NCBI GenBank assembly: GCA_945870455.1
Contig: CAMBSL010000003.1
Location: forward strand, 1 to 56,417
From: Pirellula staleyi DSM 6068
Lineage (GTDB): Bacteria > Planctomycetota > Planctomycetia > Pirellulales > Pirellulaceae
Length of the DNA stretch: 56,417 bases
Direction of reading: 5' to 3'
A program made the translations under genes and the position numbers. Below the pieces are notes generated by a model that was not told the origin of the DNA, made no database searches, and was given only the letters and a program-made list of their open reading frames with translations. Shown here piece after piece: positions 43,906 to 47,833 of the stretch. How positions within the stretch are numbered: position 1 is the stretch's first letter; each line of letters opens with the position of its first letter.

Positions 43906-44736
43906 ATGTTTGCAAAACCCTTTCAATTCTTCTTGTCTGCACAATCCTCAAAGCGGCTGGCTGCGATGGCAATCACGTTTGCTTGTGCATCGTCCGCTTT
44001 CTCCCAAGAGTATCTTAACGGGATTAAATGGACTGCACCGGCGATTATTACACCTGGCGCTCGAGATTCGGATGCTCCCTCGGATGCTGTCAAACTCTTT
44101 GATGGCAAAGATCTTTCGCAATGGAAGAACGCGGAAACTTGGGTTGTGAAGGATGGCGTCGCCATTTGCGGCAAAGCACAGATTACGACCAAGGAAGAGT
44201 TTGGAGATTGCCAATTGCATGTTGAGTGGTCAGCACCGACGCCAGCAGTCGGCAGTGGGCAAGGGCGTGGCAACAGCGGCATTTTCTTGATGGGAAGATA
44301 CGAATTGCAAGTTCTTGATTCGTTCGACAACCTCACCTACTTTGACGGCCAAGCGGGTGCGATTTACAAGCAGACACCGCCGATGGCGAATGCGATGCGC
44401 AAGCCTGGTGAATGGAACGCATATGACATCTTTTGGACTGGGCCTCGATTCAAAGAGGATGGATCGTTGGAAACACCAGCTTACATCACTGCTGTTCATA
44501 ACGGTGTATTGGTCTTGAACCATTTCCAATTGCTCGGCGACACACCCTTTAACCGACCGCCGCAATACAAGGCACACTCCCCCAAAGGGCCAATTTCCAT
44601 TCAGGACCACGGGAATCCCGTTCGCTTTCGAAACATCTGGATTCGCGAAATCGCCAACGCCAAAGGAGTTCAAGAACGCGAACCATTCCTTCGCAGTGGG
44701 GACAAAGAAACACCGATTGCAAAAAGTCCCAAGTAA
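43906..44736 (+). CDS. DUF1080 (3-keto-disaccharide hydrolase-like) secreted protein
   Basis: LFDGKDLSQWKN, CQLHVEWSAP, GNSGIFLMGRYELQVLDS, KPGEWNAYDIFWTGPRF, GPISIQDHGNPVRFRNIWIREI. Confidence 0.95.
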   Translation: MFAKPFQFFLSAQSSKRLAAMAITFACASSAFSQEYLNGIKWTAPAIITPGARDSDAPSDAVKLFDGKDLSQWKNAETWVVKDGVAICGKAQITTKEEFGDCQLHVEWSAPTPAVGSGQGRGNSGIFLMGRYELQVLDSFDNLTYFDGQAGAIYKQTPPMANAMRKPGEWNAYDIFWTGPRFKEDGSLETPAYITAVHNGVLVLNHFQLLGDTPFNRPPQYKAHSPKGPISIQDHGNPVRFRNIWIREIANAKGVQEREPFLRSGDKETPIAKSPK

Positions 44737-44804: not shown

Positions 44805-44912
44805 CAAACCCTGTGGATCGCGCACCGCAGTCCGCAGGACATCATGGACGAAATCGCGTCGCTGGACGCCGAGAGCGCCGAAGTGCTGCAATTAATTCGA
44901 GGGCTATTATGA
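44805..44912 (+). pseudogene. hsdM remnant (last ~35 codons of a type I R-M methylase)
   Basis: QTLWIAHRSPQDIMDEIASLDAESAEVLQLIRGLL-stop resembles HsdM C-termini. Ends in an ATGA overlap with the hsdS relic. Confidence 0.6.
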
Positions 44913-45097
44913 CCGACCAACCACAACGCCGTGGGAGCGATGGGAATAACAGGAATAATGAAAATCATGTTTCCCATTCTTCCCATAAATCTCCTTTGCC
45001 ATCATCTCCCTTCGCCCGCCTCTACGAGCGGAAGCTCGCCGCCCTGGAGGCGTTGAAGAAGTCGTTGCTGCACCAAGCTTTCACTGGAGAACTCTAG
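44909..45097 (+). pseudogene. hsdS remnant, internally deleted (start codon plus extreme C-terminus)
   Basis: MTDQPQRRG...FARLYERKLAALEALKKSLLHQAFTGEL; the C-terminal helix is typical of HsdS and both recognition domains are absent. Confidence 0.75.
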
Positions 45098-45122
45098 AAA
45101 TGAAACTGCGAGCGAGCTCCCC

Positions 45123-45336
45123 AGCCCTGCAAGGGCGTAATGTGATAGCCCGGGGTGAAGCCCCGGGTAACGCGTCGCAAAAAATATTCCAAGCCCTGAA
45201 AGGGCGACACAACCCCGCATCCACCAGCCGTTTGGTTGCGTCGCAAAATTGTTCCGCCCCTTCAGGGCGGGGAAATCATTGGGACGTCGAACCCGGGGCG
45301 TTGCCCCGGGCTATCACATTGCGCCCTTTCAGGGCT
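45123..45336. repeat. Composite palindromic element with 46-bp imperfect terminal inverted repeats
   Basis: Left arm 45123-45168 AGCCCTGCAAGGGCGTAATGTGATAGCCCGGGGTGAAGCCCCGGGT; right arm 45291-45336 is its near-perfect reverse complement. Confidence 0.85.
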
Positions 45337-45354
45337 GCCGAACCCCAAAGCCTC

Positions 45355-45450
45355 GCCAACCTCTACGAACGGAAGCTCGCTGCTCTGGAGGAATTGAAGA
45401 AGTCGCTGCTGCACCAAGCGTTCAATGGTCAATGGACAAAGAATAGTTGA
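45355..45450 (+). pseudogene. Second hsdS C-terminal remnant
   Basis: LANLYERKLAALEELKKSLLHQAFNGQW; about 88% identical at DNA level to the tail at ~45022-45090, differences mostly synonymous. Confidence 0.75.
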
Positions 45451-46016
45451 TAATGGACAACGATGAGACGCCCAAGTCCGAGATCATCCTTTATCAAACC
45501 GAGGATGGCCGGACTCGCATTCAATGCCGATTTGAGAACGAGACAATTTGGCTTACGCAAAAGCTGATGGCGGAGCTATTTCAAAAAGACGTCCGCACAA
45601 TCAATGAGCATATTCAGAACGTCTTTGCCGAGGCGGAGTTGGCTCCCGATTCAGTTATCCGGAAATTCCGGATAACTGCCGCCGATGGGAAAACGTACGA
45701 TACCCAGCACTACTCCCTTGAAATGATTATGGCGGTTGGATACCGGGTGAAGTCCCCACGCGGCACGCAGTTTCGCCAATGGGCCACGGCTCGATTGAGC
45801 GAATACCTCGTGAAGGGATTCGCCATGGACGACGAACGGCTCAAAAACCCACCTGGCAAAGGGCATAAGGGCTACTTCGACGAACTGCTAGAACGCATTC
45901 GCGATATCCGATCCAGCGAACGACGCTTCTACCAAAAAGTGCTCGATATGTATGCTACCAGCGTTGACTACACACCCAAAACCGAAATGTCCCAAGAGTT
46001 CTTTGCAACGGTCTAG
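45447..46016 (+). pseudogene. rhuM: RhuM-family protein, C-terminally truncated
   Basis: EIILYQTEDGRTRIQCRFENETIWLTQKLMAELFQKDVRTINEHIQNVFAEAEL...VGYRVKSPRGTQFRQWAT; ends at ...MSQEFFATV, about half the usual length. Confidence 0.8.
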
Positions 46017-47833
46017 GCTGCTTTGGACTGAATCTTGGGAGCATTGAGCCCAAATAGACCGAAGATTTCTTTCTGGTTAAGACCAAGATTTTTTGGTGTT
46101 CCGGCTTCTGCAAAGAGGGTGTTAAACAACTCTCGCTTCTGTTCGAGCACGTCATGGATGCGTTGCTCGATCGTATCAAGCGACATCATGCGGGTCACGG
46201 TCACTGGCTGCTTAACCCCTAGACGATGCGCACGGTTGATTGCCTGATCCTCGACGGCTGGGTTCCACCAGCGGTCAAATAAGAACACATAGTGGCAAAA
46301 CTGCAGGTTTAAACCGACGGCTCCTGCACCGTAACTCATCAAGATCACCTTATTCTTGGGGTCATTCTTGAACTGATCGATGATTGCATCGCGTTTGCCG
46401 GATGGAATTCGCCCGTGGTACTCCAGCGGCTGATATTTGGCTAATCGCTCCTTCAATACGTCGAGCGTTTGGACCCATTGACTGAAGATAATTGCTTTTT
46501 GACCACTTGCAGCGATCTCTTCGAGATCTGCTTCGAGTCGTTCCATTTTGGCGCTGGATCCGGTGGCTGGATCAAAATTGCAAATCTGCTTTAGCCGCAA
46601 CACCAATTCAAATACATGATGAATGGTGACTGATTCACCCATTTCCGATAACTGAACGATTCCGTCTTCTTCGGCCGTACGGTAGCTAGCTCGCTGATCG
46701 CCCGTAAGTTCAAGATCGGCTGGCCGGAACAGCTTGGGAGGCATGTCGGTCAGCACTTTGTCTTTGGTTCGTCGGAGGATGTAATCTCGCGTCGCATTGC
46801 CAAGGGATTTCAAATGCATATCATCGCGCAGATAGCCTGGGGACAAAAACTCGAAGATGCTGACCAAATCCTCAACGGAGTTTTCGATGGGAGTTCCTGT
46901 CAACGCCCAGGAACGAGCCCGAGGAATCGATCGCACGATCTCGCTGGTAGTGCTATTGCGATTTTTGATACGCTGAGCTTCGTCAAGCACGACCAAATCG
47001 AAATGCAATGCGTTCTCTTCGAACACATCACGGTCTCGCATCATCAATTCGTAATTGGCAATTTTGACTGGGGCTTGCGGGTTATTCCAAATCCAATTCC
47101 GCTTGGCCGCATCCCCTTCGATAATCGCAAGAGGGATCTCGGGTGCCCACTGTCGGAACTCTCGAATCCAATTCGTAACGAGGGGTTTCGGGCATATGAG
47201 AAGTACGTTCTTCAATTCGCTCGACAGCAATAGCATTCGAATCGCAGTGATCGCTTGCATGGTTTTGCCCAAACCCATTTCGTCGGCCAGAATTGCCGCG
47301 GAACGAGGGAACAAGAAGGCGATGCCTTCCAGCTGGTACGGGAATGGCTGAAACGGAAAAGTCAGTTTGGCGGTTTGGACGATAGACTCAAGCGGTGGTT
47401 GCAGGACATAGTAGAGGCGGTCTTCCAGTCGAACAAGGTCGCCGGGTGGCCGAATGCGAGTGACCCTTGCGCGATTTCCTGAGGCTCCCTCATCCTGAAC
47501 TTCGTCGCTTTCAGCCTCGTTTTTTTTCGGCTTAACTCGTGACGGGTTGTTTTGATCGGAATCTTCTACCTTGGTTTGTGGCGCCAACCACTCGGGCGAC
47601 TCCGGAAATGAGAAGCCTATCGTTCGTGGCAGGGACTGGGACAATTGAATGGGCAGGACTTTCGGCGCATGGAATGGTTCCAGGCTCAGTCTGCCCTGCT
47701 GCTCATCGCAATTGAAAACGACGTCAAACGGGTTTGTTGACAGAAGCGGCTCGAAGAGGGAGATATCGAGGTCGTGAGCGAGCCAACTTGCATTGCTTGC
47801 TGTTTCGATCGTGCTCTGTTCTGAGCGATTCAT
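46013..47833 (-). CDS. SNF2-family DEAD/DEAH helicase
   Basis: ILADEMGLGKTMQAI, DEAQRIKN, TGTPIENSVEDL, LMSYGAGAVGLNLQFCHYVFLFDRWWNPAVEDQAINRAHRLGVKQPV. Confidence 0.95.
   Translation of the reverse strand: MNRSEQSTIETASNASWLAHDLDISLFEPLLSTNPFDVVFNCDEQQGRLSLEPFHAPKVLPIQLSQSLPRTIGFSFPESPEWLAPQTKVEDSDQNNPSRVKPKKNEAESDEVQDEGASGNRARVTRIRPPGDLVRLEDRLYYVLQPPLESIVQTAKLTFPFQPFPYQLEGIAFLFPRSAAILADEMGLGKTMQAITAIRMLLLSSELKNVLLICPKPLVTNWIREFRQWAPEIPLAIIEGDAAKRNWIWNNPQAPVKIANYELMMRDRDVFEENALHFDLVVLDEAQRIKNRNSTTSEIVRSIPRARSWALTGTPIENSVEDLVSIFEFLSPGYLRDDMHLKSLGNATRDYILRRTKDKVLTDMPPKLFRPADLELTGDQRASYRTAEEDGIVQLSEMGESVTIHHVFELVLRLKQICNFDPATGSSAKMERLEADLEEIAASGQKAIIFSQWVQTLDVLKERLAKYQPLEYHGRIPSGKRDAIIDQFKNDPKNKVILMSYGAGAVGLNLQFCHYVFLFDRWWNPAVEDQAINRAHRLGVKQPVTVTRMMSLDTIEQRIHDVLEQKRELFNTLFAEAGTPKNLGLNQKEIFGLFGLNAPKIQSKAA

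What the first reader, a model, noticed from the sequence alone, without database searches (positions are those of the whole stretch)
44805..46016. Scar of a dismantled type I R-M locus: hsdM tail, mini-hsdS, palindromic element, second hsdS tail, truncated rhuM
Within 1.2 kb are a 3' HsdM fragment in ATGA overlap with an hsdS start codon, an hsdS reduced to its first codons plus the C-terminal helix (LYERKLAALEALKKSLLHQAFTGEL), a ~214-bp palindromic element, another hsdS tail, and a RhuM protein cut at ...SQEFFATV. Known knowledge: rhuM genes are often embedded in type I R-M operons. The two hsdS tails differ mainly at synonymous sites, which suggests two formerly functional genes rather than one recent duplication. 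This looks like a decayed defence locus whose intact form may survive in relatives.
Basis: partly seen in the sequence, partly recalled or inferred. Interest (0 to 1): 0.72.

Follow-up and report, generated by a model that had tools for sequence, protein, structure and literature searches.

The report
Relic restriction operon with repeated gene-ends
A freshwater Pirellula-type bacterium carries the crumbled remains of a type I restriction-modification operon, and its odd doubled gene-end turns out to be a recurring footprint, also found in intact operons of other bacteria, of how extra genes were probably spliced into such operons.

Summary
(1) The ATG overlapping the hsdM stop (44909) starts not an hsdS but a four-helix-bundle gene (TIGR04258/TIGR02436). 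The matching locus in sister genome G016 still holds that gene, and intact hsdM/four-helix-bundle/hsdS/hsdR operons exist in other phyla. The 'mini-hsdS' is this gene's first ~34 codons fused to the last 28 codons of hsdS. (2) Two hsdS tails need not mean two hsdS genes. Loose 3' tails of the upstream hsd gene recur around accessory genes in other operons: five copies on the hsdS side, all 36-37-codon ORFs with ATG exactly 24 nt before the tail, their first codons resembling the hsdR start; on the hsdM side, 7 of 11 operons with an inserted gene keep 16-60 nt of hsdM end before hsdS. The palindrome is an inverted pair of Rfam Acido-Lenti-1 motifs. RhuM is cut at codon 189, at the same base in both species, so the scar predates their split. 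The locus itself is dead and ordinary. The repeated-tail footprint is, as far as I could find, undescribed; how it forms is inference.

The parts
43906..44736 (+). left flank: 3-keto-disaccharide hydrolase (DUF1080, PF06439); 95% nt identical in G016
   Evidence: Pfam E=1.7e-46; alignment with L054
44817..44912 (+). 3' end of hsdM (31 codons), stop overlapping the next ATG (ATGA)
   Evidence: E=2e-6 to Pirellulaceae HsdM, only close match of that family in the own genome; tblastn
44909..45010 (+). 5' end of a four-helix-bundle suffix gene (MTDQPQRRGSDGNNRNNENH...), 34 codons left
   Evidence: 91% identical to the same gene in G016; TIGR02436 in the G016 fragment; TIGR04258/TIGR02436 in intact relatives
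44940..44986 (+). imperfect palindrome within the four-helix-bundle N-terminal codons (ATGGGAAT..../..ATTCTTCCCAT)
   Evidence: sequence; a similar arrangement in L117 and other four-helix-bundle genes; the fold of the surrounding 111 nt is not significant (z=-1.2)
45011..45097 (+). hsdS 3' tail no. 1 (FARLYERKLAALEALKKSLLHQAFTGEL*), in frame with the four-helix-bundle start
   Evidence: PADLOC Specificity_I; tblastn
45100..45450 (+). ORF from an ATG 2 nt after tail 1's stop, reading in frame through the palindrome into hsdS tail no. 2
45110..45350 (.). palindromic repeat element, an inverted pair of Acido-Lenti-1 motifs; related pieces at many other places in the own genome
45123..45167 (-). 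Acido-Lenti-1 RNA motif (RF01687), 39.5 bits
45292..45336 (+). Acido-Lenti-1 RNA motif (RF01687), 44.4 bits
45349..45435 (+). hsdS 3' tail no. 2 (SLANLYERKLAALEELKKSLLHQAFNGQ), directly before rhuM
45453..46016 (+). rhuM (PDC-S05 candidate defence gene), truncated, joined to the 3' end of the SNF2 gene at CTAGGCTGC
   Evidence: PF13310 E=8.5e-56; PDC-S05; same cut in G016
46013..47833 (-). right flank: SNF2 helicase, conserved in 39 of 40 relatives; not part of the R-M locus

Best explanation
The locus is a dead remnant of a type I R-M operon that stood between a DUF1080 gene and an SNF2 gene in the ancestor of the two Pirellula-type genomes (window and G016). Its order was at least hsdM, four-helix-bundle gene, hsdS, tail repeat, rhuM. 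The rhuM cut and the flanking junctions predate the split of the two species. Afterwards each lineage lost different parts: the window lost most of the four-helix-bundle gene and hsdS, leaving two hsdS tails; G016 lost the hsdM end, hsdS with its tails and the front of rhuM, and keeps a broken four-helix-bundle gene. The doubled tail is best read as the footprint of accessory-gene insertion: in other operons an accessory gene sits between two copies of the upstream gene's 3' end, so that the upstream gene keeps its end and the downstream gene keeps its native start region. An inverted pair of Acido-Lenti-1 motifs now occupies the space between the tails. Shown: gene identities, shared scar, recurrence of repeated tails. 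Inferred: loss of function, order of events, and formation by recombination between the hsdR start and the hsdS tail.
For: Gene identities. Sister locus G016:C94 (Pirellula sp. Tobar2m-G36, L116): flanks 95-96.5% identical, scar pieces 94.3% and 95.9%, same rhuM cut point, different remains. Intact operons: L040 hsdM-hsdS-rhuM-hsdR; L122, L128, L134, L140 with the four-helix-bundle gene between hsdM and hsdS, and L117 with the same ATGA start MTEKNRNDGKNGSDRNYENH. Tail repeats on the hsdS side: L215, L274, L275, L276, L277. On the hsdM side 7 of 11 operons with an inserted gene keep hsdM-end sequence before hsdS. First 18 nt of the five tail ORFs resemble hsdR starts (each within the top 0.3-1.7% of 722 gene starts).
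Against: Four of 11 hsdM-side insertions (L124, L134, L140, L275) and several hsdS-side ones (L040, L216, L217, L218) show no repeated tail, so it is not obligatory. No locus shows one operon before and after insertion. In the window nothing but the palindrome lies between the tails, so a lost accessory gene there is an assumption. Three of the five tail ORFs match hsdR starts only weakly. The five are probably not independent. In L276 and L277 the upstream hsdS lies beyond the contig end.
Confidence: 0.76

Rival explanations
1. One reading: two separate, formerly functional hsdS genes, each reduced to its tail.
For: The tails differ at 11 of 27 codons, so they are not a recent copy of each other. 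Duplicated hsdS genes are known elsewhere (PMC7394358).
Against: No trace of a second target-recognition domain in the window. Loose tails without recognition domains recur beside a single full hsdS in L274 and L275.
Confidence: 0.15
2. The tail ORFs are a real microgene: a 36-residue peptide copying the distal conserved helix of HsdS, kept by selection in intact operons; the window would hold a relic of it.
For: Five of five tail ORFs in otherwise intact or semi-intact operons have ATG exactly 24 nt before the tail, in GC-rich and AT-rich genomes alike; 12 of 36 columns are invariant in an alignment of the five plus one consensus sequence.
Against: A fixed start also follows from one joining point (hsdR Met-Asn-x-x-Glu-Thr to hsdS Gln-Arg-Leu) without function. 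L275's copy has lost the conserved Tyr and several other consensus residues. Most operons lack it.
Confidence: 0.15
3. The tail is kept only because it holds the ribosome-binding and coupling region of the next gene (GGAG of the FTGEL codons; ATGA overlap of hsdM and hsdS), and arises by chance joins of many kinds.
For: All 7 hsdM-side repeats end at the native ATGA overlap. Orphan tails also stand directly before rhuM in L306 and before a Fic-domain gene in L307, with no hsdM or hsdR nearby.
Against: Does not by itself explain the constant start of the hsdS-side ORFs.
Confidence: 0.45
4. The short ORFs are chance similarity or assembly noise.
For: Tails are short, and most genomes used are draft metagenome assemblies.
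Against: E-values of 1e-4 to 1e-14 per genome; diverged repeat copies within contigs in many genomes; neighbouring hsd genes.
Confidence: 0.02

Closest known systems
Type I R-M operons with embedded accessory genes (for example DarTG2 between hsdS and hsdR with RptR, PMC12255303)
   Same: Accessory or defence genes sit between hsdM, hsdS and hsdR in one operon; rhuM between hsdS and hsdR in L040, L218 and L312.
   Different: Here the locus is broken, and repeated 3' ends of hsd genes bound the inserted genes in a subset of operons; I found no description of that.
Duplicated or truncated hsdS loci that switch specificity by recombination (SpnIII, tvr; PMC4190663, PMC6265443, PMC7394358)
   Same: Extra partial hsdS sequence beside a full hsdS.
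   Different: Those carry target-recognition domains and, in inverting systems, inverted repeats; the tails here hold only the last ~30 codons, in direct orientation, so they cannot switch specificity.
Acido-Lenti-1 RNA motif (RF01687, PMC2864571)
   Same: Both arms of the palindrome reach the family's gathering score.
   Different: Here it is an inverted pair lying inside an open reading frame between two hsdS tails.
Four-helix-bundle proteins TIGR02436/TIGR04258
   Same: The window's N-terminal codons match this family's gene in G016 and resemble that in L117.
   Different: Only 34 codons remain; in most relatives that I scanned the gene stands alone, in some it lies between hsdM and hsdS.

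Membership tests
Type I R-M operon (functional) | full-length hsdM, hsdS and hsdR | tested here: not met
   Only 31 codons of hsdM and two ~28-codon hsdS tails remain, no hsdR fragment was seen at the site, and there is no other hsdM of this family in the genome.
Type I R-M operon (remnant) | order and junctions as in intact operons | tested here: met
   hsdM end with ATGA overlap, four-helix-bundle start, hsdS tail, rhuM; intact counterparts L117, L122, L128, L040.
TIGR04258/TIGR02436 four-helix-bundle gene | four-helix-bundle core and suffix domain | tested here: not met
   Core and suffix are deleted in the window; assignment of the remaining N-terminus rests on 91% identity to G016, whose fragment reaches TIGR02436 only below cut-off (16.9 against 24 bits, E=0.0055) but aligns with intact TIGR04258 proteins.
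RhuM (PF13310, PDC-S05) | profile match over the gathering score | tested here: met
   189.5 bits against 33.7, but only profile positions 1-122 of 252.
RhuM (PF13310, PDC-S05) | complete protein | tested here: not met
   Ends at codon 189; intact relatives about 350 aa.
Acido-Lenti-1 RNA (RF01687) | covariance-model score above the gathering threshold | tested here: met
   44.4 and 39.5 bits against 37, full model length 1-46.
Specificity-switching hsdS locus | recognition domains and inverted or direct repeats within hsdS copies | tested here: not met
   No HsdS profile match outside the C-terminal tails, no recognition domain.

The most novel reading that the evidence does not exclude
Type I R-M operons gain accessory defence genes by a recurrent cassette-like route: recombination at the conserved 3' ends of hsdM and hsdS (and at a Glu-Thr codon match between the hsdR start and the hsdS tail) stacks a new gene in front of a copy of the upstream gene's end, leaving 36-codon HsdR/HsdS chimeric mini-genes or hsdM-end repeats that preserve translational coupling and let genes be swapped or lost again by homologous recombination.
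Probability: 0.35. Interest if true: 0.65.

Novelty: new variant of a known kind. Interest (0 to 1): 0.46.

Why it matters
Accessory and defence genes are often found inside type I R-M operons, but how they get in without breaking the operon is not clear to me from the papers I could find. Repeated hsdM and hsdS ends that bound inserted genes would be a direct, searchable footprint of that process, and short loose hsdS tails could serve as markers for finding unannotated accessory genes beside them. The footprint also warns annotators that an orphan hsdS tail is not evidence of a second specificity gene.

Tried and rejected
A tail-peptide search of plasmids returned nothing, perhaps because BLAST masks the Leu/Lys-rich peptide. 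DNA-pattern scans of viral contigs for the tail ORF and tail returned nothing; an HsdS-profile scan gave four viral-contig loci, of which two keep the plain hsdM-hsdS overlap; none was searched for repeated tails. Tail DNA against E. coli genomes and a second plasmid search gave nothing. A possible orphan tail on the Aquincola plasmid (L314) was set aside because its hsdS may run across the record start. Short-frame hits at contig ends (L218, L220, L279, L308, L309) were not counted as orphan tails. Seventeen hits in the phylum of G683 included no short-frame tail. Shufflon or inverton reading rejected for lack of recognition domains. A group of solitary four-helix-bundle loci in Planctomycetia was examined for a fixed hsdM link; only L101 there (and L187 elsewhere) keeps an hsdM end upstream.

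Full report
What is there. The window's 44.8-46.0 kb segment lies between a 3-keto-disaccharide hydrolase (DUF1080) gene and an SNF2 helicase gene. In order it holds: the last 31 codons of hsdM (44817-44912; E=2e-6 against an intact Pirellulaceae HsdM, and no other close match of that family in the genome); an ATG overlapping the hsdM stop; a short ORF ending in an HsdS C-terminal tail (45011-45097); a palindrome (about 45110-45350); a second HsdS tail (45349-45435); and rhuM cut at codon 189, which abuts the SNF2 stop codon.

The overlapping start codon. The sister genome G016, contig C94 (in the public set Pirellula sp. isolate Tobar2m-G36, L116), has the same neighbours at 95-96.5% nucleotide identity. 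It reads MTDQPQRRGSDGNKRNNENHDSRSSHKSPLPSSP followed by a protein that matches the four-helix-bundle family weakly (TIGR02436, E=0.0055, below cut-off) and aligns at 51-73% identity to relatives; one of those relatives and three operon-borne four-helix-bundle proteins carry TIGR04258 clearly over cut-off. In L117 (Verrucomicrobia) the same kind of gene, MTEKNRNDGKNGSDRNYENHSSHTSYHSHNSHS..., starts at the same ATGA overlap with a full hsdM and is followed by hsdS and hsdR. L122, L128, L134 and L140 have the same gene order. So the window's 'mini-hsdS' is a deletion chimera: four-helix-bundle N-terminus plus hsdS tail.

The scar is shared and old. G016 keeps the left junction up to ACCTGTACCGAGACATGGCC, then the four-helix-bundle gene with a stop at codon 108 and further damage, then rhuM codons 143-189 joined to the SNF2 end at the same base as in the window. 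The shared pieces are 94.3% and 95.9% identical. The rhuM cut therefore predates the split, and the two lineages lost different parts later. Same-genus G006 has an hsdM-hsdS-rhuM-hsdR order, though its hsdR was reported in two frames. G021 keeps a C-terminal hsdS half plus full rhuM, and G002 a rhuM fragment beside a tRNA-like end.

The palindrome. It folds far better than shuffled sequence (z=-11.4) and is an inverted pair of Acido-Lenti-1 motifs, both over Rfam's gathering score. A blastn search of the own genome lists 43 matches, including self and reverse-strand matches, at many contigs, so it is a dispersed repeat that landed here. The reading frame from an ATG at 45100 stays open through it into tail 2.

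The doubled tail. I searched the tail peptide in 392, 388, 395 and 399 genomes of four phylum-level samples. Loose tails with short frames turned up beside full or broken operons. In L274: hsdS, TPR-protein gene, loose tail, a gene with a nuclease-like match, hsdR. In L275: hsdS, DUF429 gene, loose tail, rhuM, hsdR. In L215: tail, HD-domain gene, tail (96 nt at 97% identity), a TspO-like gene (by eye, not scanned), fragments of rhuM and hsdR. In L276 and L277 a loose tail stands after an accessory gene and before rhuM or hsdR. All five loose tails are ORFs of 36 or 37 codons with ATG exactly 24 nt before the tail. Their first 18 nt resemble hsdR starts: each lies within the top 0.3-1.7% of 722 gene starts from the same loci, clearly in L276 and L277, weakly in the others. 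In Pseudomonadota a loose tail also precedes a solitary rhuM (L306) and a Fic-domain gene (L307); L310 has a tail with stop codons beside a similar gene that I did not scan.

The hsdM side. Where hsdS follows hsdM directly the two overlap by ATGA or nearly so. Where an accessory gene lies between them, hsdM-end sequence is found again right before the hsdS ATG in 7 of 11 operons: strongly in L117, L128, L284, L285 and L286, and over only the last 16 or so nt in L122 and L274 (P 0.0005 and 0.001 against 20,000 ATG-preceding controls). It is absent in L124, L134, L140 and L275. The inserted genes include four-helix-bundle, KilA-N, Bro-N and, without a repeat, a DUF1016 nuclease.

Reading. The repeats let the upstream gene keep its end and the downstream gene keep its start region. 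One way to make them is a crossover between the hsdR start of one operon and the hsdS tail of another at a shared Glu-Thr codon pair; another is integration of a circle carrying tail plus gene. Neither is shown. A tail kept only for translation, or a true 36-residue peptide, remain possible. In the window the second tail would be such a footprint. I did not find this described in the papers searched, but most subscription journals are not in that library.

Limits. Most genomes are draft assemblies; L276 and L277 end before any hsdS; the five loose tails may share descent; five 36-codon ORFs are too few for a selection test. The tail comparison in the window (6 synonymous, 5 non-synonymous codon changes of 27) reflects hsdS history and does not show that the tails themselves are under selection.

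Verdict. The repeated gene ends are the part worth following up.

Noticed in passing
window 44940-44986; L117 1681-1770; L122, L286, L098-L100: Four-helix-bundle genes carry low-complexity, palindrome-like N-terminal codons (Gly-Asn-Asp runs followed by His-Ser-Ser-His runs).
   Followed up: partly
G000:C27 (L038 9821-15616): The own genome keeps a different type I-like system: an hsdR-like 848-aa ORF, a KilA-N-type 347-aa ORF, and an 808-809-aa ORF that matches both HsdM and Methylase_S.
   Followed up: no
L274 around 9400: The hsdM-end remnant before hsdS is interrupted by peptide-coding repeats of the CPEPVE type, another palindromic repeat landing in the same kind of spot.
   Followed up: no
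L045 8500-9600 (G002): A rhuM fragment lies next to what reads like a tRNA 3' end, with GCCCTGAAGGGGC-type palindromes directly upstream.
   Followed up: no
L110 7835-9058 and 10267-11499: Two tandem near-copies of a long ORF containing a four-helix-bundle domain and a C-terminal Cys-rich stretch.
   Followed up: no
L101 8766-8846; L187 9855-9935: Four-helix-bundle genes away from any full R-M operon keep an orphan hsdM end just upstream.
   Followed up: partly
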